Virus record (IMG/VR): IMGVR_UViG_3300025889_012072
Coordinates: 1 to 32,095 of that record
DNA from: a virus
Reading direction: 5' to 3' (one strand)
Length of the DNA stretch: 32,095 nt
The notes under the pieces were generated by a model. That model was not told where the DNA came from. It saw nothing but the letters and a program-made list of their open reading frames with translations, and searched no databases. Below, one piece after another: positions 5,241 through 19,257 of this stretch. Position numbers and translations under genes: made by a program. Position 1 is the stretch's first letter. Each line of letters opens with the position of its first letter.

Positions 5241-8080
5241 CAGGTGTTCCTTTCCGTAGTATCGGTCGAAGTTGTGCGACCCCTACAGATCATTGCCATC
5301 AGTTTATAGTCTAGATCCGGGCAGAAGATCTCGATTCCGGGGTTCAGGGCAGAGTCCTGAATACCATGCCTTCCCGTAGTGCTTAGACCAGAAACCGTGA
5401 ACGCGGCATAATCAGAAGACTCCCCGTTCTGAATAGAGTCTCCAATAATGGCCCCGGAAAAATCAGCAGGAAATGCTGAAACAGCAGGAGAATCAGAGGA
5501 TGTGTTGTAGGCAAGGCCCCGGAAGAACTTGTAACCAGAAACCCCTCCCCCCACATCAGAGAAGTGGCATCCCACTGACGACAACTGCTTGTTCTGGAAC
5601 AGATCAAACGAGGTAATGATCTGCTCATCCTTGGTTCGAACCATGGGGAGGGCTCCCCCGACATACCTGAAGAACATGGGGCTAAGAGCAAGCACATCGC
5701 CTTCAGAAAGGCTGGAGGATACATTTCCTCTTGGGGTAATGAAGGAACGGGTGCCAGAGCCACCGTAAGTACCGTCCACCGTGACGGTCCCCCCACTAGC
5801 CTTGAGGATCTGGAACTTCTGGCCCACCTTCGTCTGGTCGGTTGAGGACACCACATAGACGTAGGCCCCGCAAAGATCGAGGGCTGCCGATCCTTCGGTG
5901 GGATCTGCTCCCAACTCTTTTGTGGTGCTTAGTCCACTCTTCAGGATGACGGTGTTGTTGGGGGTACCAAGCGTCACAGACTTGACCGTGAAGATGCTAT
6001 CTCCTCCGCAGTCAAGGGTCCTCAAGACCTTGTCTGTTCCAGCCGTCAGATCAGTGGAGTTGACCGCTACCTTGTCTCGGTCTGTATCCAAGATGTAGAC
6101 ACGAGGTCTCCAGCCCGTAGGAATGTTGGATGGAGAAGAAGGGTCAGGATGGTTCTGGAGAAAGAACGACCTCTCGACCATGTCCGAGGCTGTCGTCGGG
6201 ACAGGGGTAGTGTTGTCGAAAGAGTTCCGGGTGTAGTCCTTCTGCCAAATGCCAGAACGGATATCGTCAAAGTCCATGTCGTGGAACTCAGTCACCCGGC
6301 CCGTCGAGAACCACATCGCAACCGTCTGTTCTTTGACGGGGTTGTGTACGAACAGGCAAGAAGCGTACGAGTCGTAAGACAATCGAATGGACGAGAGGTT
6401 GTCGTACCAGTCTTCAAGCAGTAGGTTGTCCAATGCTTTTACATCGTCCAACTGTCCGTTGTTGGCGATTGCCTTAAGTCCCTTGCTGGTCACAAAGTAG
6501 ATCACGGGACCAGCGGTCGCATAAGCATCAATACCAGAAAGACCAAAGCCTGAGTGCAGGTCCTCGATCTTCAGATAGATACCGTTTCGACGGATGTGGT
6601 AGATGCGGTCCTTCGAGAAACCAATCGCAAAGTCACCTGCTCTTGCCAGTCGAATGACCCGATTCTGAAACACATCAGGGGTGTACTTGTTGTTGATAGG
6701 AAAGAGTTCGGGGCTACGCTCTGTCAACGAAGACCAGCGGATCTCTCCAATGTCACGGATCCTCTGATCGAGATCCGTGGCAAGAATGCCAACCTCTCCT
6801 TCCGGATCACTGGTAATTAGACTGCCGTCAAATGCAGTTGCTGCACCTACAAACGGCATCTTCTCGTCGCAAGTAATGCGGTCAAGGTAGATATCCTGCA
6901 TGGACAACGCGATGTCATCCAGTCGATAGACCACCTTGAAGATCTTAACCCCGCTAGGGTAGGTCAAATTTGCGTTGGCAGAAGTGTCTTGTTCTTCGAT
7001 ACCCACATATTCAGCGTTGGTGTCTGCAACAGCATCGCCAATGTCGTAGATGGTGTCGAGATGAAGGATGCTGCCCGAATAGGTACTTCCAACGCTCTGC
7101 ATCTTGACCGATCTGAAGAGATAGATCTGATCAAACTTGTTGGTGTCGATTTCCGTTGTGATCCGGACATGATCGCCGTTGGTTATGGAGGGTCCGTCTT
7201 GCGAACGCTGGGCAATCTTGCTCAAAGGCGTTCGGCGTCCTGTATGGCTGTCATGCAGGTAGTAAGCGAAACTGTAATCGCCTTCTTTGAATGTATGGAA
7301 CTTGACCTCTGTATTTGAGCCCGGAGTCTCACCGCTATCCACAGGCGTTTCAATCAAAGCAATAGGAGTAGTGTCACTTTCCCAACTTGTGTCTCGGCCA
7401 TTGGCATCAGGAGACCCTACGACGAAAACAGGTTTGTCTGAAGACTCGTTCTTTAGTCGAGGCTCATTTCCCGGCCCACCGTTAATGACCTGATGGGTGT
7501 AGGTAGATGTACCGTCGAAGTCGATGTAGAAGACACGAGGTTGTCGGCCCTTCACAAAAGTGAAGACGTACTTACCCATTGAAACCACATCCATCTTTGC
7601 AGTAGATAGAACGTGGCCTCCAGCGGCAGTAGTGTGTTCGCTGATAAGGACTGTCCTCCATCCGGTGGCACTGTCCACCGTGTTGGTTGGAACGTAGTCC
7701 ATGTAGATCGCAGTGTTCGTAGACCCAATAGGTTGGACGCGGTAAACAAAGCCGTGGCCGAATTCGCCTTCCCGAATCTGGAAGTGGACGGGAAAACAGT
7801 CCGTCACTGCAGACTGGGCATTAACTGCTGGGGGGGCTACATCGGAGAACGGGCGAACTGCGTCGGCAGCCGCAGGATTAGACCCTTGAAAGTTCTGATT
7901 CCAGTTGAGCGTGTGGGCCAGACGAAAGCCAGAAGACGGCCTGCACCCGAAACGACGGCTTCCGTCTACACCCACAACCTCGTGGGCAGTGCCTTCTCCA
8001 GACAAAGCAATACGCTCAATGCCCTTGTTCTCAGAGGCAGTGACCGTCGGGTAAATCCATCTACGATTAATTTCAGGCAT
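5240..8080 (-). CDS. Probable tail nozzle / tail tubular protein B-like protein
   Basis: This 946-aa protein is predicted almost entirely beta. Around residues 490-545 it has the kind of alternating signature seen in podovirus nozzle and stopper proteins with a beta-propeller core (FSKDRIYHIRRNGIYLKI, then GPVIYFVTSKGLKAI). Its N terminus opens MPEINRRWIYPTVT and contains a host-factor-like loop region with few helices. Size, all-beta character and position just before the internal proteins argue for the tail nozzle, the role of T7 gp12 or P22 gp10. A large receptor-binding or tail-hub protein is the main alternative. The start overlaps the upstream gene by 8 nt, with AAGGA upstream at a workable spacing. 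Confidence 0.75.
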   Translation of the reverse strand: MPEINRRWIYPTVTASENKGIERIALSGEGTAHEVVGVDGSRRFGCRPSSGFRLAHTLNWNQNFQGSNPAAADAVRPFSDVAPPAVNAQSAVTDCFPVHFQIREGEFGHGFVYRVQPIGSTNTAIYMDYVPTNTVDSATGWRTVLISEHTTAAGGHVLSTAKMDVVSMGKYVFTFVKGRQPRVFYIDFDGTSTYTHQVINGGPGNEPRLKNESSDKPVFVVGSPDANGRDTSWESDTTPIALIETPVDSGETPGSNTEVKFHTFKEGDYSFAYYLHDSHTGRRTPLSKIAQRSQDGPSITNGDHVRITTEIDTNKFDQIYLFRSVKMQSVGSTYSGSILHLDTIYDIGDAVADTNAEYVGIEEQDTSANANLTYPSGVKIFKVVYRLDDIALSMQDIYLDRITCDEKMPFVGAATAFDGSLITSDPEGEVGILATDLDQRIRDIGEIRWSSLTERSPELFPINNKYTPDVFQNRVIRLARAGDFAIGFSKDRIYHIRRNGIYLKIEDLHSGFGLSGIDAYATAGPVIYFVTSKGLKAIANNGQLDDVKALDNLLLEDWYDNLSSIRLSYDSYASCLFVHNPVKEQTVAMWFSTGRVTEFHDMDFDDIRSGIWQKDYTRNSFDNTTPVPTTASDMVERSFFLQNHPDPSSPSNIPTGWRPRVYILDTDRDKVAVNSTDLTAGTDKVLRTLDCGGDSIFTVKSVTLGTPNNTVILKSGLSTTKELGADPTEGSAALDLCGAYVYVVSSTDQTKVGQKFQILKASGGTVTVDGTYGGSGTRSFITPRGNVSSSLSEGDVLALSPMFFRYVGGALPMVRTKDEQIITSFDLFQNKQLSSVGCHFSDVGGGVSGYKFFRGLAYNTSSDSPAVSAFPADFSGAIIGDSIQNGESSDYAAFTVSGLSTTGRHGIQDSALNPGIEIFCPDLDYKLMAMICRGRTTSTDTTERNT

Positions 8081-8336
8081 CAGACTTGTCCTTGCACGGT
8101 AGTGCCTTGTTTAGGGAGGCACGGCGATTACCGCAGCCACACCCTTTCCCCCCACTAACGGCCTTCACAACCTTCTCAACGCCCGTCTTCCTGAGGAAGT
8201 TGGCGACCTTGTCACCCGCTCCTCGGTCAGGGCCTTGGTATTGATCGCATGAATTGCAGTCTTCGATAGAAGGCTTCATTTCAAAAAGACCGAGAGTGCA
8301 GTGGTTGTTTCGATATCTATCGCAAGTGTAACTCAT
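8073..8336 (-). CDS. Small Cys-rich conserved phage protein of unknown function
   Basis: This 87-aa protein has eight cysteines. The N-terminal part carries C-x7-C then C-x2-C spacing (CDRYRNNHC ... CNSC). The C-terminal part reads VANFLRKTGVEKVVKAVSGG followed by GCGCGNRRASLNKALP. From memory, the combination of 'G-GD-V', 'TG-KKVV' and 'CGC--RR--LN---P' recurs in small proteins of many tailed phages, beside tail or fibre genes, without a known function. The Cys pairs could bind zinc. It is coupled to its neighbours on both sides (ATGA with the Cys-rich gene upstream, an 8-nt overlap with the nozzle gene downstream). Confidence 0.75.
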   Translation of the reverse strand: MSYTCDRYRNNHCTLGLFEMKPSIEDCNSCDQYQGPDRGAGDKVANFLRKTGVEKVVKAVSGGKGCGCGNRRASLNKALPCKDKSDA

Positions 8337-10222
8337 GGAATATCAATCGTCCCGTCTTCGCAACCCTCAGGCGGCGCATCAACGCATTCAATAGAAGTGA
8401 TTGTATCGGAAATAGATGCCTCAATCATGAGGCGTCGTGAGGCTTGCTGAACAGCATCCAAAGGATTGATGACCATGTCGTCTTGAGTCGCCGTATGGTC
8501 AAAAGAAAAACTCCAACTCAGCCCCAAGGATCCGCAGATGTAATCTTCTTTTTCATCTGCATCGACGTAAGGATTCCCAAATTTGCCTAGATCCCAGTTG
8601 TTGGTTCCCGGCCCATCAAACAACGGCTTGAACTCGCCGTTACGCCATTGACTAAAAACATTACCCAATTTGAAACGAGGCAAAATGCCCGAAGCGATTC
8701 CCTGATCGTGCATCTGAAGAAACAGGGATGAGAATTGAATAAAAGAGTTGGCGTCAGTCCAGAACATGCCCTCAAATTCAGGGATGTCTGTGCAACAGCA
8801 GTCATCCTTTGCATTGAAGTCAACCATGGATGTCGCCATCTTGAGATTAAAGTTGGCGGTGTCTGTAAGGGTTCCGGGGAACGAGCCTGTCTCAACGTAG
8901 TCGGTAGACGTTTCAATTAGAAGAGGGTTTGTAGATGTGGTTGTAAGGTTGTTGCTCCACACCATCACGCAGTCATCGTTGGTTGTCCCGGCCTCGCAAA
9001 TTTCGAGCCAGCCTCCGGGCGAATTGCTAAGGTTGCAACCCTTTGTTATGGCGTCTTCGTAAATGTCCTTACGCTTCTGCAACTTAGAGCCACCCATGGT
9101 GTCTTCTTGGTCAGGGATGCTAAAGGTTGTCGTTGAAGTGAATTCTGTAGAAACGTCTTGAGGGTTGTTGTCGTCATTATCGGCGACATGGCTGATAGTA
9201 GATTTGTGAGCAAACCCGCCGTCAACAAGATTAAAGACTTGGATGTTTGAAACCACCGTGCATCCGGGGTCAGGTTTACAGTGATTAGAGTAAATCTGAT
9301 CCCACTCATTCACACTTGAGACACCGTCCCAAGTAGTTGCATTTGCTTCCAAGTATGTTTCGTATTGGAGGGCAACACCAAAGCGTATTTCGTTCTTGCC
9401 TTCACCTTCAATCCTTCCATCGAAACTTCCAGATTGAAAGTCGTCATCAAACTCTGAGGCTTCAATAAGAGACTCGAACAAAAATACTTTAGTGCCACTG
9501 ACCTTCAAGTAGTCTCCTTGGCAACCTTGAGTCCTGCAAACAACGGGGCAATCAGAATCTTCGCAGTTGTCTTGCAACGTAAATGAAACAGCACTAGAGG
9601 CGTTAAGTCTTTGGACCTTGCCGTCTGGGACATCGCATTTAAGACACTGCTCGGTAAGGGGTTTGGTTGCATCGTCAAAGCAAAGATCAGTAGAACCAGC
9701 AAGACTTAAGTTCCCGCAAAACTTGAAGCATGGTTCTTCAGCAGGATCCTCGCAGCATTCTGTTCCATCGGTTCGTTCAAACAGCCAAGTCCCTGCGTAG
9801 GTAGTTGGATCTGCAAGGTCAATAGTTCCGGGGGTAAGCCCTAGAAAAGTCTCCCACTCCGATACAAGGGCGGCCATGGTGTACGCACCGCACAACTCAT
9901 CGTCGCACGGCACAAAGAACAACAGGGGCAGCGGGCAGTCAGGATCATTACAATCATCCTGCTTTTCAAAGCCACTTGATGGAGCAAAACTACCTAATGG
10001 TTCCGGGGAATCTGTTTGGAACTTGCCGCAGAAGTCGCACGGTTCTTCTCGATCAGGGTCGTTGTATTTCCAAACGTCGTCAACGACAGGGACTTCGCCA
10101 AGTATTACAGTCCACTGACTCTTAAGAGCAAAGAAACCTTCTGCACACGAGTCAGTGCCGGGACAGGGGACAAAGAAGAAGAAAGGATCATCTTCACAGC
10201 AGCAAGTGGTCCAAGGGATCAT
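8333..10222 (-). CDS. Large cysteine-rich virion protein with internal repeats
   Basis: This is a 629-aa acidic protein with 33 cysteines, about 21 of them in the first 230 residues, often as CCC, CC, C-x2-C or C-x4-C. Two diverged repeats are visible at about residues 10-68 and 96-172. Each runs from an 'FFVPC' strand through a Trp-containing helix (W-x-L/F-LG) to 'EEPC-x2-CG'; a third partial copy starts near residue 219. The C-terminal 300 residues are ordinary beta-rich virion sequence. I chose the ATG at 10222 because it overlaps the upstream stop as ATGA; the frame stays open to a TTG at 10315, which would overlap by 97 nt. No family is recognised. Dense disulphides or metal sites are the obvious possibilities. 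Confidence 0.75.
   Translation of the reverse strand: MIPWTTCCCEDDPFFFFVPCPGTDSCAEGFFALKSQWTVILGEVPVVDDVWKYNDPDREEPCDFCGKFQTDSPEPLGSFAPSSGFEKQDDCNDPDCPLPLLFFVPCDDELCGAYTMAALVSEWETFLGLTPGTIDLADPTTYAGTWLFERTDGTECCEDPAEEPCFKFCGNLSLAGSTDLCFDDATKPLTEQCLKCDVPDGKVQRLNASSAVSFTLQDNCEDSDCPVVCRTQGCQGDYLKVSGTKVFLFESLIEASEFDDDFQSGSFDGRIEGEGKNEIRFGVALQYETYLEANATTWDGVSSVNEWDQIYSNHCKPDPGCTVVSNIQVFNLVDGGFAHKSTISHVADNDDNNPQDVSTEFTSTTTFSIPDQEDTMGGSKLQKRKDIYEDAITKGCNLSNSPGGWLEICEAGTTNDDCVMVWSNNLTTTSTNPLLIETSTDYVETGSFPGTLTDTANFNLKMATSMVDFNAKDDCCCTDIPEFEGMFWTDANSFIQFSSLFLQMHDQGIASGILPRFKLGNVFSQWRNGEFKPLFDGPGTNNWDLGKFGNPYVDADEKEDYICGSLGLSWSFSFDHTATQDDMVINPLDAVQQASRRLMIEASISDTITSIECVDAPPEGCEDGTIDIP
9707..10198 (-). 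repeat. Diverged Cys-rich protein repeats within the 629-aa gene
   Basis: Two copies of a 60-77 residue module lie at 10019-10198 and 9707-9937. Both contain a hydrophobic strand ending in VPC, a Cys about 5 residues later, a Trp-centred helix, an insertion of variable length and the ending EEPC-x2-CG. Similarity is at the protein level only; the DNA has diverged. Confidence 0.6.
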
Positions 10223-11484
10223 GAGGGGCAAGTTGCCTTTAAGATCGGCATCAAGCCAGTTACATAAGTGTTGGCTGAGACTCTCTGAGCCAAGAGGATT
10301 GCACCTATAGGCCAAAGAACGTGGGTAAGTTGCACTGTCTCGCCGTCAAGAACCTTATCGTCAATCTCATTTTGAGGGAAGGCGTGGGAGTAATCGAGAA
10401 GTATCTGGCCGGTTGATTGTGTGATGTTGGCGTCTGAGGTACCCGTACCGTCAAAGGTGTAGGCGGTAACTACATACCTGCGGTACGCACCAATCTCGTT
10501 ACTGTCTGTATTGGGGGTCGGATCTTGGCCTGTTATTTTCACCAACTGAGCCCCAAAGCCAGCGTGGCCCACGGGGAGCATATTGAACCGCACTTCGTCA
10601 GGGTCGCCTGCTGCGTGCGTAATAAGCAGGGTACCGTCAACCACGGGATTGGAAGTCACGTTTGTGAACTTCAGGCCCTGATCACCCTTTGCAGCAGTCA
10701 TCACACCAGACTCATCTGTAGCAACCGTCTTGTACCCAAAGACGCTTGAGTCAAGGGACAGCGTAATTGCATCGCCAGTAACCGCGCTCGCTATCTCTCC
10801 TGTAGTTCCATTGAGAGCAAGCGTGCTGTTCTTTGAAGTAGGAGTTGCCGTGCCGCTATCGGAAGCAAACTTCTCGTAGAGCGGGCGAGTGAAGTCAATC
10901 TCCACCTTGGACGTATCGTTGTCGCCCGTCACAGTAGCACTCAGGTAGGCGTTAGCCCCCCCAAATGATGCCGTCGATATCTCAAGGTCCTTGTTTGGGG
11001 CAGTGGCTTCGCAGTCGCCCGTGTCGCCAGTGATCCTTTCCCACGAGTTTGAAGGCGTGCCCCCAAGAATGTCAATACGACCGTCTACAAAAACCTGCAA
11101 AGCGGCGTCATCGACGTTGACTGTAAAAGTAGTAGGAGGAGCCCCACTGTTATTTACGTTGATTCTGTTTCCCCCCACGACTTGGCTGTAATCAACTCCA
11201 GCAGCAGCGCCGTCAGGGATATTGAAGTTGAAGGGCGTTGCGATCTGGACTTGGGGGGCTCCGAAGAACAGATTGCTTACACCCTGTGGGGGGTTCTGGC
11301 TGGCGTAACTATAGTTGTTGCCGACGTAAGAGTACGGGACATCTGAAAGAGTGCCTGCAATAGACATCTCTTGGAAGAAGTGCTTTGTGCTATCTGGTCC
11401 CCACCCAATGTACGAAACCGCTTGGGCTTCTCCGGGCATCAGCCCATAAGAAGTATTTGGGTCGTTTTCGTTTAGGTAGCCCAT
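10219..11484 (-). CDS. Unknown beta-rich virion protein, probably tail/fibre associated
   Basis: This 421-aa protein is dominated by Thr, Gly, Asn, Asp and Ala, with repeated short beta strands and turns (for example LSLDSSVFGYKTVATDES). No signal peptide, helix bundle or catalytic motif is seen. It begins MGYLNENDPNTSYGLMPGEA and ends in a hydrophobic strand (GAILLAQRVSANTYVTGLMP). Location between the fibre module and the Cys-rich protein suggests a structural tail component. The ATG follows the stop of the small membrane-protein gene by 3 nt. Base composition here is close to the genome norm, unlike the genes immediately upstream. Confidence 0.7.
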   Translation of the reverse strand: MGYLNENDPNTSYGLMPGEAQAVSYIGWGPDSTKHFFQEMSIAGTLSDVPYSYVGNNYSYASQNPPQGVSNLFFGAPQVQIATPFNFNIPDGAAAGVDYSQVVGGNRINVNNSGAPPTTFTVNVDDAALQVFVDGRIDILGGTPSNSWERITGDTGDCEATAPNKDLEISTASFGGANAYLSATVTGDNDTSKVEIDFTRPLYEKFASDSGTATPTSKNSTLALNGTTGEIASAVTGDAITLSLDSSVFGYKTVATDESGVMTAAKGDQGLKFTNVTSNPVVDGTLLITHAAGDPDEVRFNMLPVGHAGFGAQLVKITGQDPTPNTDSNEIGAYRRYVVTAYTFDGTGTSDANITQSTGQILLDYSHAFPQNEIDDKVLDGETVQLTHVLWPIGAILLAQRVSANTYVTGLMPILKATCPS

Positions 11485-11487
11485 GGG

Positions 11488-11619
11488 TCACTTGTCCAAC
11501 TTGTCCTTGATGTCCTCTAGGTCACGGCGAATGCCCTTGACCATTGTGTAGTAGACCAGAACCCACACGATGAGCGGGGTGAGATTGTTTTCGAGGATCG
11601 GCAGGATCGAAGGTTCCAT
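11488..11619 (-). CDS. 43-aa single-helix membrane protein (holin-like size, function unknown)
   Basis: This small gene encodes 43 residues: a short N terminus (MEPSILPILENN), one hydrophobic helix at about residues 13-27 (LTPLIVWVLVYYTMV), and a charged amphipathic C-terminal helix (KGIRRDLEDIKDKLDK). One transmembrane segment plus a short coiled tail is seen in small phage membrane proteins, including some holin-associated ones and tail-anchored virion proteins, but no family can be assigned from this length. The start shares a base with the stop of the dockerin gene (TGATG), and the stop lies 3 nt before the next start. Without it there would be a 130-nt gap in a genome that otherwise has none. 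Confidence 0.7.
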   Translation of the reverse strand: MEPSILPILENNLTPLIVWVLVYYTMVKGIRRDLEDIKDKLDK

Positions 11620-12245
11620 CAATCGGCTCCCGGCTCATAAGTATCTGACCACTGCCCGAACAGGATCCCGAGATCCTTTCCGTCAACGACCCCATCGAAG
11701 TTGAGGTCCGATCGGTTCTGGTCGCTGCCGAAGTCAGCGAGCAGCAAGCCCTGATCCTGAGCGTTGACCACGCCATCTGCGTTGATGTCTGCGATCTGGT
11801 CAGCCCTGCGAATCGTGCAAGCCCAGTTGATCGCTTCCGTCACAGTTTCGTTTCCGGGCACCGCGAAGGTGTAGTCGGAAACGATTCGCTGCTTCTCCGC
11901 GTCCCAGCAGAGATCGGAACCCTGCTCGAAGATCGGAACGAACCCGTCGTCGACTCGCGTTGACATCCGGTACTTCACGTTCTTCTCGGAGCCGCTCATG
12001 TTCTGCACCTGAGCAGTCCCCTCGACGGTGAACCATCCGACCTCCGTGACAGCAGGTCGAACATAGGTCACCATCAAGGCTCGCGTTTCGGTGCTTGCCT
12101 GCGAGTTGACCTCGATCGCGTCGGTGACATTGCCATCTGAATCCACGAAGGGGAGACGAGTGGTAGTCATCGGCAGCATGCGAGGGCTGCACGGCTCGGC
12201 GTCCTGAACAGCCACGATAGTTGCGAGTGCAAATTCAATCATCAC
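11619..12245 (-). CDS. Protein with C-terminal dockerin domain
   Basis: This 208-aa protein has a clear pair of dockerin Ca-binding repeats at its C terminus: residues 153-172 (DINADGVVNAQDQGLLLADF) and 180-199 (DLNFDGVVDGKDLGILFGQW). Each has the D-x-N-x-D-G-x-V-x-x-x-D loop; the likely Ca ligands are D153, N155, D157 and D164, and D180, N182, D184 and D191. Dockerins bind cohesin modules and are best known from cellulosomes, but they are also abundant in Planctomycetota, whose repeats often end in 'DLG-LLG-W' as here. Residues 35-145 look like a beta domain (DSDGNVTDAIEV ... WFTVEGTAQVQN). The N terminus has a weak hydrophobic stretch (FALATIVAV), not a clear signal peptide. The start overlaps the upstream stop (ATGA). 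A dockerin in a phage tail module is unexpected. Confidence 0.85.
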   Translation of the reverse strand: MMIEFALATIVAVQDAEPCSPRMLPMTTTRLPFVDSDGNVTDAIEVNSQASTETRALMVTYVRPAVTEVGWFTVEGTAQVQNMSGSEKNVKYRMSTRVDDGFVPIFEQGSDLCWDAEKQRIVSDYTFAVPGNETVTEAINWACTIRRADQIADINADGVVNAQDQGLLLADFGSDQNRSDLNFDGVVDGKDLGILFGQWSDTYEPGAD

Positions 12246-12469
12246 GGCAGTTCCGGGTCATCAAAAGGCGTCGGGTCGTAGGCGATCGACTTCAACGCGT
12301 TCGCCGCTGCGATCATCTCGTTCGCCGAAGCGACGAGCAGGTCGATGTGCGCTTCGTCGAGCGCGGTACGCGGCGCGGTCTCCTTGTACGCGTAGCCGAG
12401 CGTGCCGAGTCCAGTCTGCACCGTTGCGAGTGCCTGCGTGAGAGAAGCGAAAGTGAAGATCGTTTCCAT
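12242..12469 (-). CDS. Unknown 75-aa helical protein
   Basis: This small, mainly helical, acidic protein (METIFTFASLTQALATVQTG ... LDEAHIDLLVASANEMIAAA) belongs to no family I recognise. The ATG follows the upstream stop by a single base, and its stop overlaps the start of the dockerin gene, so it is embedded in a coupled series. Its sequence is rich in TCG and GCG words, like its neighbours on both sides and unlike most of the window. It could be a small fibre chaperone or trimerisation factor, but only position suggests that. Confidence 0.65.
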   Translation of the reverse strand: METIFTFASLTQALATVQTGLGTLGYAYKETAPRTALDEAHIDLLVASANEMIAAANALKSIAYDPTPFDDPELP

Positions 12470-12470
12470 G

Positions 12471-13109
12471 TCATGTCACCTGAGTTGGGGGCCAGTTTGA
12501 ATCCGTGATCGTCGTTGCGTCATCGAACCAGTAGAAGCGAACCTTGAACCCGACGCTGTAGTCCGATGCCGAACACTTCGGAGAGGAGTTCCAGTAGTAA
12601 TGGGAGCCTGCATTGGCTCCCCAGTCCGGGCTGTACGTCGAGCCGGTGTCGTTGTACCGCTTGAGCATGGCGATCGTGCCGTCGCTTCGTTCGGCTTCGC
12701 ACACCCAGTCGTAGTTACTGTTCGCAGCGAGGACATCGCTCATCGCCGTCTGCTCGCTGCCAGTCGAACTCTGCGTGCTGTCGGGATGGTTCCTGAAGTC
12801 GATTCCGATCGTCGTGTAGGAACCGAACCACGCCGTCACCCACCACACCAAGTCACCGCCGACCGCGATGTTGCCGTAGGCACAGGTTGCGTTCGATGGT
12901 TCGAGGTCGCCGTCGATCGTGATGTTGTAGTTGTAACCTCCGGAACCACTGTTGGCGGAGGCGTCGTATCCGATCATGCCGGGAGCGAGCGACGAGGTTG
13001 ACCACGCCGTGTGGACGGTCGCCTCAAACGAGTGGTCTGCCTCATCACGCCACGTCGTCGTCCCGGAAGATTGCGTCGGGAAGAACAGCCATTTGCTTGG
13101 TGGTGTCAT
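12471..13109 (-). CDS. Unknown beta-rich protein after the fibre gene, possible receptor-binding or fibre-tip protein
   Basis: This 212-aa protein is rich in Trp, Tyr, Ser, Thr, Gly and Asp (about ten Trp), with few basic residues. Segments such as YNYNITIDGDLEPS and DYSVGFKVRFYWFDDATTI read as beta strands. Aromatic-rich beta proteins directly downstream of a phage fibre are often fibre-tip or carbohydrate-binding subunits, but no lectin motif was identified. It is coupled to the fibre gene (ATGA). Composition is CpG-rich, matching the 3' half of the fibre gene and the next two genes. Confidence 0.65.
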   Translation of the reverse strand: MTPPSKWLFFPTQSSGTTTWRDEADHSFEATVHTAWSTSSLAPGMIGYDASANSGSGGYNYNITIDGDLEPSNATCAYGNIAVGGDLVWWVTAWFGSYTTIGIDFRNHPDSTQSSTGSEQTAMSDVLAANSNYDWVCEAERSDGTIAMLKRYNDTGSTYSPDWGANAGSHYYWNSSPKCSASDYSVGFKVRFYWFDDATTITDSNWPPTQVT

Positions 13110-15781
13110 TCGGTGTATTCCACTGAGAAGATGACATCGGTCGCGGACGAGTTCGACGAGGTGACGAGCGTGAGAACCGCGTCAGCAGCCAGCGAAGTGT
13201 TCGCGAGACCCGTCTGGTTGCCGGTGCCGGTTCCTGCCGTGACCTGCTTGACAACGTCGCTCCCGTTCTTGAGATTCACGACCACGCTTCCGGATCCGGT
13301 CTTGATGTAGAAAGCCGAGATGGTTCGAGCGGTTGCGACGGCTGGGTCAAGGGTGTACGTCTTGTCGGCCGCCGTCTCGATCTGCCCAGTGTACGATCCC
13401 GTGTTTGTGATGCCGAGGTTGGTGCGAGCGGTCGCGGCGCTATTGAGGTCACTCAAGTTGTTCGAGGCGACGAGATCGCCTGTGCCGCTTCCCGCACCGA
13501 TGGCAGATCGAGCGGCAGCCGCATCGGCAGCAGTGAACACGTTCGCACCGACCGTGGTCGCTCCAAGGTTCGTGCGAGCGGTCGCCACGTTCGTCACATC
13601 TGAGAGGTTGTTCGACCCGACCATGTCGCCGGTCCCGGTGCCGACGCCGATCGCTGATCTGGCCGCCGCCTGATCTGCCGCAGTGAAGACGTTCGCGCCG
13701 ACCGCCGTCGCTCCGAGCGTGGTCCTCGCTGCTGCTGCGTCGGCGTCGTCGATCAGCGTGCCACCGAAGGCCGAGACCGCAGACGATGCCACGAAACTAG
13801 ACCAGCCGAGGTTTCCGCTGCCGTCCGTCTTCAGTGCTTGGTCCGCCGAACCCGTCGCAGTGGGAAGAACGAGATCGTAGTTGGCTCCCGCACTATGCGG
13901 AGGAGACTTCAAGCCGACGCCGTGCGTTCCTGCCTCGCACATCAGGCGGATCTTGCCGACGTTGCTGGTGGCCGATCCGCCGACTTCAAGGTGTCCGCTT
14001 CCATCTGGGAGGAGCGTCAGGTTGCCGTCCGATGTGGAGGTGGTGATCTTCTGGGCCTGCACGTCAAGGTCGCCACCGAGTTGCGGCGTCGTGTCGCTGA
14101 CCACATCCTGCAACGCAGAATCCGCCTTCGTCCCCTGCGCAGCCGTTGCGAAGTCACCTGTTGCAGATGCGGCTGCGGTCCCCGCGTCCGTGATGTTTGC
14201 GAGCGTATGGGTGTGAATCGCTCCAGCGTAGTTCGTCGAGTCTGTCGTCGCGGCGGTCCCGAGATTGAGCGTCGTTCGGGCTGCGGCTGCGTCGGCGTCG
14301 TCGATTAGCGTTCCACCGAAAGCGGAGACACCAGACGCAGCGAACGCCCCGATGTCCGAAAGGACTTCAGCAGCAGTCCTGCTGGTGACCTTGGTCCCGA
14401 TGGCCTCAAGTCGCAGGAATTCGTTAGCAGTCACCCCGGAAGGAGCAACCTGAAGGACATCGTTGCTCGTGATACCGACATCAAAAGCAGCAGCCGTTCC
14501 CGAGTCGGTGATATTCGCGAGTGTGTGGGTGTGGTTCGACGCAGCGGCACCGAGCGTCGTTCTTGCTGTCGCGGCGTCCGCGTCGTCGACAAGAGTCGCT
14601 CCGAAGGTCGAGATTCCGTGGGCAGTGGTGATCGCGTTGTGGGTTGCAATCGAACCAGCAGCCTCAGCGACAGAAGTCAGAGTCGTGGAAACCGCTTGGT
14701 TGCTTCCATTCCCGTAGAAGATCTTTCCGCTATCGAGGTTGGGAGTAGCGTTTGAGCGTCCTGCACCAAGAACCTTGATCGAACCGTTCGTGCCACCGCC
14801 GGTGTTTGCCTTGATTACGAACCCGATCTTCTGGATCGCGGCACTCTCTCCGGTTGGAGCGGTGTTGGTGAAATCCCCTGCGGTCGTTGAAACAAAAAGT
14901 TCATCGCCAGCAGAGTACGTTCCCGAGGGAAGATCAATGCCTTCCAACGTGCCAAGCGTAGTGATATACACCTCTGCTCCGGAGTTGCCTCCGGTACTGA
15001 TTACGCCAAACGAAGGCATCTTCGCCGCGTCATCGGCATCAGCGAGATCGACATCAGGCGTGTTTCCGCTGGTGTATCCAGAGATGTACACAACATCACC
15101 AACTGAAAGTGCAGATGCGTTCCCGTTCTTCGCTCGGAACATCACCGAGCCTTCGAGATCCCCGTGAATTTCAGCCCAGCGGAAATCGGCAGACCCAAGG
15201 TCCAAAGTCCCATCTGCGTTCGGGATCAAGTCAATGCTGAGACTGCCCGATGTCAAACCGCTCGCGGGCAGAGACGATCCAGCAGATAAGTTTGTCAACT
15301 GCGAGCCATCAACCGCAGGCAACTTTGCATCGCCATCAAGTTGGACAATCTGGTTTGCTGATGTGCCGGGTACAAGCCCAAGATCAGTGCGAATTGCAGC
15401 AAGGTTGTTGTAGGAAACCGTAAGGGCACCGCTGACATCTGCAACGGAATAGCCCGAAGGCATTGTGACACCCGTCACCGTTCCCAACTTTGTATTGGTA
15501 ATAGATACTGCACCCGCTGCATCGGTTAGGACGTTCATCCCCGTCAAACCAGTTACTGATTGAACAGGAGCAGCCGCAGAAGCACGAGCATTGGTGTAGT
15601 AGAGGTTGCTACTTCCCTCATTCAAGGAGTCGGTGGTTTGCCCGCTAAGGTTTACAGCCCCAACTCCCAAAGCCACTGTCACCGTATTTGAGACAGGCGA
15701 ACTAAGCGTCACGGTATTGCTGCCTGCAGGCGTAATCGTGACGTTATCGGTAGTCGTCGAAATTGTGACAGTATCAGCCAT
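13106..15781 (-). CDS. Tail fibre protein with repeat-rich shaft
   Basis: This 891-aa protein shows several fibre hallmarks. Residues 1-45 are a Thr/Val beta region. The segment at 50-66 (TDSLNEGSSNLYYTNAR) matches a sequence frequent at the head of marine phage fibres. The segment at 556-582 (ALQDVVSDTTPQLGGDLDV and following) is another common fibre shaft word, and repeats of the type GGTLIDDADAAAARTTLG lie at about 394-411, 489-506 and 673-690. Two 50-residue copies occupy 691-790. The C-terminal 100 residues form a separate beta tip. The protein probably mediates host binding. The start overlaps the upstream stop (TAATG). DNA composition changes within the gene near residues 390-480, the 3' part being more CpG-rich, which suggests domain exchange. 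Confidence 0.85.
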   Translation of the reverse strand: MADTVTISTTTDNVTITPAGSNTVTLSSPVSNTVTVALGVGAVNLSGQTTDSLNEGSSNLYYTNARASAAAPVQSVTGLTGMNVLTDAAGAVSITNTKLGTVTGVTMPSGYSVADVSGALTVSYNNLAAIRTDLGLVPGTSANQIVQLDGDAKLPAVDGSQLTNLSAGSSLPASGLTSGSLSIDLIPNADGTLDLGSADFRWAEIHGDLEGSVMFRAKNGNASALSVGDVVYISGYTSGNTPDVDLADADDAAKMPSFGVISTGGNSGAEVYITTLGTLEGIDLPSGTYSAGDELFVSTTAGDFTNTAPTGESAAIQKIGFVIKANTGGGTNGSIKVLGAGRSNATPNLDSGKIFYGNGSNQAVSTTLTSVAEAAGSIATHNAITTAHGISTFGATLVDDADAATARTTLGAAASNHTHTLANITDSGTAAAFDVGITSNDVLQVAPSGVTANEFLRLEAIGTKVTSRTAAEVLSDIGAFAASGVSAFGGTLIDDADAAAARTTLNLGTAATTDSTNYAGAIHTHTLANITDAGTAAASATGDFATAAQGTKADSALQDVVSDTTPQLGGDLDVQAQKITTSTSDGNLTLLPDGSGHLEVGGSATSNVGKIRLMCEAGTHGVGLKSPPHSAGANYDLVLPTATGSADQALKTDGSGNLGWSSFVASSAVSAFGGTLIDDADAAAARTTLGATAVGANVFTAADQAAARSAIGVGTGTGDMVGSNNLSDVTNVATARTNLGATTVGANVFTAADAAAARSAIGAGSGTGDLVASNNLSDLNSAATARTNLGITNTGSYTGQIETAADKTYTLDPAVATARTISAFYIKTGSGSVVVNLKNGSDVVKQVTAGTGTGNQTGLANTSLAADAVLTLVTSSNSSATDVIFSVEYTE
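13412..13711 (-). repeat. Tandem 150-bp repeat (2 copies) in the fibre shaft
   Basis: Two adjacent in-frame copies of a 150-bp unit (13562-13711 and 13412-13561) encode 50 residues each, from VGANVFTAAD through NNLSD to ATARTNLG. I count 40 of 50 residues identical between copies. Both begin directly after a GGTLIDDADAAAARTTLG unit, so the shaft has probably grown by duplication. Confidence 0.85.
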
Positions 15782-18990: not shown

Positions 18991-19257
18991 TCAGCACTTC
19001 CATCTGCGGCGAGCCTTGCGGAGCCGACTGTTCGGATCCTTGGCAGCCTTGGGGAACTTCTTCATCTGCCCCGCCGACCGGGCACAGAAAGACTTCTTAC
19101 GGGGACCACCTCCGGGCTGGGGAGCCTTGAGGTTGGAGCCCGTCTTTCGATTGATGGAGGCGCGGCCCTTGGCAGTAAGCCCGCCCTTCTTGGACTTGCA
19201 GCCGCTCTTGATTGAGCAGCCTTTCATCGCGCCCTTCTTTTTGACTTTCTTAGCCAC
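18991..19257 (-). CDS. Polycationic 88-aa protein, DUF6321-like
   Basis: This 88-aa protein has 30 Lys/Arg, a single Asp and four Cys (C14, C20, C58, C88). The core GGLTAKGRASINRKTGSNLK, followed by RKKSFCARSAGQMK, and the ending RLRKARRRWKC, fit my memory of the small DUF6321 family in phages, whose function is unknown. The start is GTG, 8 nt inside the upstream gene and overlapping its stop. It is the first and largest member of the basic cassette and the best candidate to anchor the group's function. Confidence 0.75.
   Translation of the reverse strand: MAKKVKKKGAMKGCSIKSGCKSKKGGLTAKGRASINRKTGSNLKAPQPGGGPRKKSFCARSAGQMKKFPKAAKDPNSRLRKARRRWKC

What the first reader, a model, noticed from the sequence alone, without database searches (positions are those of the whole stretch)
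11619..12245. Dockerin domain encoded in a phage tail-fibre module
The C terminus has two complete dockerin Ca-binding loops with all ligand positions intact (D153/N155/D157/D164 and D180/N182/D184/D191). Dockerins are host proteins' docking modules for cohesins. Finding one between fibre genes and a small membrane protein suggests the virion, or a secreted phage protein, docks onto a cohesin-bearing surface complex. The loop pattern and 'DLG-L-G-W' ending resemble Planctomycetota dockerins, so this may also identify the host and be a captured host domain reused for adsorption.
Basis: partly seen in the sequence, partly recalled or inferred. Interest (0 to 1): 0.8.

Follow-up and report, generated by a model that had tools for sequence, protein, structure and literature searches.

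The report
Exported phage protein with host-type dockerin
A phage, probably of planctomycete bacteria, carries a small protein that appears to be exported from the infected cell and ends in a genuine host-style "dockerin" plug, so the virus may use its host's own protein-docking system to hold one of its proteins on the cell surface.

Summary
The gene lies on the MINUS strand (11619-12242, 207 aa from ATG). Its last ~50 residues are a two-repeat dockerin. All eight Ca-ligand positions are invariant in 18 aligned homologues, and dockerin dN/dS is mostly 0.01-0.06.

The protein is not a tail-fibre domain. It starts with a hydrophobic segment, which in several relatives is a textbook Sec signal peptide. 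A confidently predicted beta-sandwich with two invariant cysteines follows, then the dockerin. The gene's stop overlaps the start of a gene for a 43-aa single-pass membrane protein. That pair recurs in 15 of 16 relatives, in at least four phage backgrounds, usually next to fibre genes.

The dockerin is of the type that caps secreted proteins in Phycisphaerae. Strong matches occur in 66 of 251 genomes of one order, and one homologue sits on a phage contig binned into a Phycisphaerae MAG. Cohesins are sparse there (27 of 251) but enriched in genomes with phage-like dockerins.

Best reading: an exported accessory protein, anchored to the host envelope by a captured dockerin, most likely for receptor masking or superinfection exclusion. 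Export, docking and function are inferred, not shown.

The parts
11619..12242 (-). Dockerin-protein gene (207 aa, ATG start at 12242; GTG at 12245 also open)
   Evidence: Open frame; 22 viral loci with relatives of its N domain and a Phycisphaerae MAG contig; purifying selection
12198..12242 (-). N-terminal hydrophobic segment MIEFALATIVAVQDA, probable export signal
   Evidence: Highest N-terminal hydropathy of the window genes scored (2.69; only the 43-aa gene also exceeds 2); relatives have canonical signal peptides, e.g. MKLFNLLVIACSVTGSVFAQ (L032), MTKYLSALLVSTIVLA (L058)
11799..12194 (-). N domain, residues 17-148: all-beta sandwich, Cys18 and Cys112 invariant
   Evidence: AlphaFold2 mean pLDDT 91.1, pTM 0.80, 10 strands; invariant cysteines
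11649..11795 (-). Dockerin domain, residues 150-198, two Ca-loop/helix repeats
   Evidence: PF00404; AF2 model superposes on solved dockerin 2y3n_B, Z 6.2, rmsd 1.8 over 48 residues, 40% identity
11754..11789 (-). Ca-binding loop 1 (D152-x-N154-x-D156...D163 in ATG numbering)
   Evidence: Ligands invariant in 18 sequences
11673..11708 (-). Ca-binding loop 2 (D179-x-N181-x-D183...D190 in ATG numbering)
   Evidence: Ligands invariant in 18 sequences
11488..11619 (-). 43-aa single-pass membrane protein, start overlaps the dockerin gene's stop (TGATG)
   Evidence: Directly downstream of the dockerin gene in 15 of 16 relatives; 72-93% identical; no family hit of note
12242..12469 (-). 75-aa helical-looking protein upstream, stop overlaps the dockerin start
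   Evidence: Homologue in the same place in most relatives; no family
12471..13109 (-). 212-aa protein, start 'MTPPSKWLFFP', part of the fibre cassette, variable
   Evidence: Homologues in L026 and L030, similar start in L021
13106..15781 (-). 891-aa tail-fibre-like protein; only parts of it are kept in other phages that carry the dockerin cassette
   Evidence: phrog_2282 tail fiber 1.4e-11; partial matches

Best explanation
The gene encodes an exported phage accessory protein: export signal, beta-sandwich with a probable disulphide, C-terminal dockerin captured from the host. During infection it is made together with a translationally coupled 43-aa membrane protein and passes the inner membrane by the Sec route. 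The dockerin then holds it, with calcium, on the host envelope by binding whatever receives the host's own many dockerin-tailed secreted proteins (a cohesin or cohesin-like module). There the beta-sandwich acts on the surface. The most likely role is masking or altering the receptor used by the fibre encoded beside it, i.e. superinfection exclusion and protection of progeny, as phage T5 does with the exported lipoprotein Llp encoded next to its receptor-binding protein. Shown by computation: a real dockerin under strong selection, host-type sequence, linkage to the 43-aa gene and usually to fibre genes, movement between phage backgrounds. Inferred: export (about 0.8), docking to a host partner (about 0.6), role in superinfection exclusion (about 0.3).
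For: Dockerin. Export: signal-like N termini in the full-length relatives, canonical in L032-L034, L037, L058 and L059; invariant Cys18 and Cys112. Host type: strong dockerin-only profile matches in 66 of 251 genomes of one order against 8 of 392 drawn across the phylum, at the C-terminal ends of predicted secreted proteins; homologous phage contig in a Phycisphaerae MAG. Cassette: fibre part / 75-aa / dockerin gene / 43-aa, followed by podovirus tail genes (window, L024, L035), a terminase and portal-like pair (L021, L059), a different terminase (L033), head genes (L030, L074) or a holin-like gene (L027). Cohesins are more frequent in genomes with phage-like dockerins: 15 of 65 against 12 of 186, Fisher p = 7e-4. 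Precedent: Llp is exported, has a disulphide, lies next to pb5 and blocks FhuA (PMC9586334).
Against: The window's own N terminus is short and lacks a basic n-region, so export is weaker for this copy than for its relatives. No cohesin was found in the linked MAG (1.8 Mb, probably incomplete) or in six of the seven genomes first found with the closest dockerins. No fold match gives the N domain a function (best Z 6.8). Host assignment rests on domain similarity and one binned contig; the window MCP found nothing in 397 genomes of the class, without a positive control. Nothing shows expression.
Confidence: 0.42

Rival explanations
1. Virion adhesin: the protein is a tail or fibre component and the dockerin attaches the particle to cohesin-bearing host surfaces.
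For: It lies between fibre and tail genes and moves together with part of the fibre. A dockerin does sit inside a fibre/baseplate-type protein of an unrelated phage, L075.
Against: Signal peptides and invariant cysteines do not fit a protein assembled into tailed particles in the cytoplasm. The gene also sits next to head genes in L074 and next to holin-like genes in L027. No fibre fold is predicted.
Confidence: 0.2
2. Lysis or release factor: the exported dockerin protein competes with host dockerin proteins for their anchor, loosening the host's surface protein coat at lysis; the 43-aa protein is a holin-type partner.
For: The pair adjoins a holin-like gene in L027. A relative, L022, has a second signal-peptide-plus-bare-dockerin protein between a spanin-like lipoprotein gene and a holin-like gene.
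Against: The window species' holin-like and lipoprotein genes lie elsewhere in its genome. Most copies of the cassette are not beside lysis genes. A large conserved N domain is not needed for simple competition.
Confidence: 0.18
3. Calcium-stabilised structural domain only: the dockerin fold serves folding or stability and binds no cohesin.
For: Cohesins are not detectable in most candidate hosts. Calcium loops without docking are known in phage enzymes (LysGH15; abstract of PMC4022735 seen).
Against: Strong purifying selection on the dockerin and close similarity to dockerins used as C-terminal tails on many unrelated host secreted proteins.
Confidence: 0.15

Closest known systems
Type I dockerins of cellulosomes and Planctomycetota dockerin-tailed secreted proteins (PF00404)
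   Same: Two Ca-loop/helix repeats with all ligands, C-terminal position, spacing and the DLGxLLxxW ending of Phycisphaerae proteins
   Different: Phage-encoded, on an N domain seen only in phages here, no recognised enzyme partner, cohesin partner unknown
NF041540 GC-type dockerin domain-anchored proteins
   Same: Weak match over the dockerin, 17.7 bits
   Different: Below the curated cut-off of 29 bits
Phage T5 Llp (and Cor) superinfection-exclusion lipoproteins
   Same: Llp: exported, disulphide-bearing small protein encoded next to the receptor-binding protein (PMC9586334)
   Different: No lipobox here; attachment would be through a dockerin; no receptor blocking shown; no sequence relation tested
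'Planctosome' cohesin-dockerin complexes proposed for freshwater Planctomycetes (PMC6461901)
   Same: Non-cellulosomal use of cohesin-dockerin pairs on the planctomycete outer surface
   Different: Hypothetical host complex; no phage component was described in the passages read
Vibrio phage VvAW1 gene 40 (PMC3558961)
   Same: Phage gene with a reported blastp hit to dockerin type I proteins
   Different: Reported in passing as a possible mark of bacterial origin; not examined here

Membership tests
Dockerin type I (PF00404) | Two ~22-residue Ca-loop/F-helix repeats with ligands at positions 1, 3, 5 and 12 | tested here: met
   All eight positions present and invariant in 18 homologues
Dockerin type I (PF00404) | Profile score over Pfam's gathering cut-off | tested here: met
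   23.5 vs 22.9 bits with both repeats, relatives up to 27.4 bits; the plain hmmscan of this copy alone is below, 15.9 bits
Dockerin type I (PF00404) | Dockerin fold | tested here: met
   Model superposes on 2y3n_B, Z 6.2, rmsd 1.8 over 48 residues, 40% identity; pLDDT there mostly about 61-76
Dockerin type I (PF00404) | Ca-dependent binding to a cohesin | not testable with these tools
   No complex prediction or binding assay was available; cohesins occur in 27 of 251 genomes of the candidate host order
GC-type dockerin-anchored protein (NF041540) | Curated score cut-off, 29 bits | tested here: not met
   17.7 bits
Cellulosome subunit | Catalytic or carbohydrate-binding domain attached to the dockerin | tested here: inconclusive
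   No Pfam hit besides the dockerin; N domain is an all-beta sandwich with only weak fold matches, many to beta domains of glycoside hydrolases, Z under 7
Phage tail-fibre protein | Fibre-type sequence or fold, no export signal | tested here: not met
   No PHROG hit, compact beta-sandwich, signal-peptide-like N terminus
Llp/Cor-type superinfection-exclusion protein | Lipoprotein signal with lipobox cysteine | tested here: not met
   Read from the alignment: no lipobox; the invariant Cys18 lies in ...QDAEPC and is conserved together with Cys112
Llp/Cor-type superinfection-exclusion protein | Blocks the receptor of the encoding phage | not testable with these tools
   Needs an infection assay

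The most novel reading that the evidence does not exclude
Phages of Phycisphaerae use the host's own dockerin-based surface anchoring to display a virus-made protein on the infected cell, as a two-gene cassette (exported dockerin protein plus 43-aa membrane protein) that spreads between different phages together with fibre genes and blocks competing phages. This would be viral use of a cohesin-dockerin system for surface display.
Probability: 0.3. Interest if true: 0.82.

Novelty: new variant of a known kind. Interest (0 to 1): 0.62.

Why it matters
Dockerins are known as docking tails of bacterial, archaeal and fungal proteins. A phage family that keeps one under strong selection on an apparently exported protein points to viral use of the host's docking system. 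It also gives a handle on what dockerins do in Phycisphaerae: candidate host genomes carry many dockerin-tailed secreted proteins but often no recognisable cohesin. The phage protein is a small, expressible probe to fish out the missing partner. It also offers a host marker for an almost uncultured virus group.

Tried and rejected
Unrelated EF-hand or structural repeat: rejected; the matches are to dockerins, with invariant ligands and a dockerin-type superposition. Pseudogene or chance frame: rejected by dN/dS. Cohesin encoded by the phage itself: none in 14 related records. Cohesin in the linked MAG: none at E<=0.1. N domain in host genomes: the profile of the whole protein finds only the dockerin part in Planctomycetota genomes, apart from the phage contig in G001. 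N domain without a dockerin: a scan with the N-domain alignment returned only loci already known or truncated at contig ends. N-domain function by fold: no PDB chain above Z 6.8, not distinguishable from common beta-sandwiches; the one strong viral match, BFVD A0A516MFS6 (E 2.6e-11, full length), has no name in the tables. Phages in public records: no usable match. Host link through the major capsid protein: nothing in 397 genomes, but without a positive control. Papers describing a phage dockerin system: none found beyond the VvAW1 remark.

Full report
What is there. Its ATG overlaps the stop of a 75-aa gene, and its own stop overlaps the start of a 43-aa gene (TGATG in both cases). The gene order on the minus strand is fibre (891 aa), 212 aa, 75 aa, dockerin protein, 43-aa membrane protein, 421 aa, 660 aa, 87 aa, 946 aa. 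The window is a 32-kb virus record without a host name.

The dockerin is real. PF00404 reaches 23.5 bits with both repeats, over the 22.9 cut-off; a plain hmmscan of this copy gives 15.9 bits. Sixteen of seventeen viral relatives match, best 7.5e-6. The eight ligand positions are invariant in 18 sequences, and dN/dS of the dockerin is 0.01-0.06 in nearly all close pairs. A profile of six viral dockerins finds cellulosomal dockerins in the PDB at 6e-7. The AlphaFold2 model superposes on the dockerin of 2y3n (Z 6.2, 1.8 A over 48 residues, 40% identity). The model's dockerin part has pLDDT mostly about 61-76, so the sequence evidence carries most weight.

Relatives. Scans of IMG/VR returned 22 loci with the N domain, 41-99% identical to it; all that are not cut off by a contig end keep the dockerin. 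One further copy lies on a contig of a Phycisphaerae MAG (MED835) that also carries neighbouring phage genes, several 82-93% identical to the window's. It is a phage contig binned with that MAG, which is weak evidence of host.

Export. The window copy begins MIEFALATIVAVQDA-EPC. Among the 29 window genes scored, only this one and the 43-aa gene have an N-terminal hydrophobic stretch above 2 on the Kyte-Doolittle scale. Relatives show canonical signal peptides: MKLFNLLVIACSVTGSVFAQ (L032, L033), MPMNWKASLSIFLAASVYA (L037), MTKYLSALLVSTIVLA (L058). Cys18 and Cys112 are invariant while a third cysteine is not, which suits a disulphide outside the cytoplasm. No signal-peptide predictor was available, so this is inference from sequence.

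The N domain is predicted as a ten-stranded beta-sandwich (pLDDT 91.1). No solved structure matches above Z 6.8, a level that common beta-sandwiches reach, so no function is assigned. The best viral match, BFVD A0A516MFS6, covers the whole protein (E 2.6e-11).

Host. Profile matches in Planctomycetota genomes cover only the dockerin. They are rare across the phylum (8 of 392 genomes at 1e-8 including the MAG) but common in the order of that MAG (66 of 251 at 1e-9). Examples: L107 'ADINGSGSVDGADLGLVLADWGTTSPRSDLNRDGSVDGVDLGLLLAAWTS' and L113 '...DLGILLGQWT'. There the dockerin ends proteins that look secreted. In the class, 121 of 150 genomes have PF00404 matches. The genomes are nameless in this tool; only the MAG's record title names Phycisphaerae.

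Partner. PF00963 cohesin matches occur in 22 of 150 genomes of the class and 27 of 251 of the order, not in the MAG or the phages. They are more frequent in genomes with phage-like dockerins (15 of 65 against 12 of 186, odds ratio 4.35, p = 7e-4). These genomes are related to each other, so the p value overstates independence. A divergent receptor in the rest is possible but not shown.

A travelling cassette. The 43-aa gene follows the dockerin gene in 15 of 16 relatives, usually with overlapping stop and start. The unit, usually with the 75-aa gene and part of the fibre, is followed by podovirus tail genes (window, L024, L035), by a terminase and portal-like pair (L021, L059; L037 by the terminase), by another terminase type (L033), by head genes (L030, L074) or by a holin-like gene (L027). 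L022, 91% identical in this protein, matches little else of the window. This speaks for an accessory, host-linked cassette and against a fixed part of one tail. Terminase, portal and holin labels in other phages are my reading of their sequences, not profile hits.

Mechanism. I think the protein is exported, held on the host envelope by the dockerin, and acts there, most likely against superinfection or re-adsorption. The co-inheritance with fibre genes and the T5 precedent, where Llp lies beside pb5, is exported, has a disulphide and shuts the receptor (PMC9586334), favour this. A role in lysis is the closest rival besides virion attachment, because L022 has a second protein made of a signal-like leader and a bare dockerin between a spanin-like and a holin-like gene. 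Attachment of virions cannot be excluded.

Novelty. In the papers held I found host cohesin-dockerin systems in Planctomycetes (PMC6461901) and a passing blastp remark for one Vibrio phage gene (PMC3558961), but no description of a phage dockerin system. The library is incomplete.

Noticed in passing
L022:12950-13138 (+): A second phage dockerin: a mini-protein of a hydrophobic leader plus a bare dockerin, between a lipobox/TM spanin-like gene and a TM/coiled-coil holin-like gene.
   Followed up: partly
L075:3461-5632 (+): An unrelated phage carries a dockerin-like repeat pair inside a 723-aa fibre/baseplate-type protein.
   Followed up: no
L009:6004-6636 and L010:3966-4598: Codons 1-171 almost identical (7 differences), codons 172-211 differ at 23 places with nearly the same amino acids: a recombination break in mid-dockerin.
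   Followed up: partly
L013/L097/L098 (IMGVR_UViG_3300006802_000165) against window 8000-15000: A 45-kb contig of the same species starts in the fibre gene and ends in the 946-aa tail gene, so it lacks just this region; it may be a hypervariable stretch that broke the assembly.
   Followed up: no
window 18991-19257 (-): Small basic protein ending CARSAGQMKKFPKAAKDPNSRLRKARRRWKC; the same C-terminal module lies at or near the end of several much longer PHROG families (525, 928, 450 aa). A similar gene sits just before the dockerin gene in L074.
   Followed up: no
window 8333-10315 (-): 660-aa cysteine-rich protein, 82% identical in L035 and L039 although its 421-aa neighbour is only about 30% identical; no family hit; its TTG-start frame overlaps the 421-aa gene by about 97 bases.
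   Followed up: no
L097:11082-11971 (+): Holin-like and lipoprotein/TM spanin-like genes of the window species, far from the dockerin gene.
   Followed up: no
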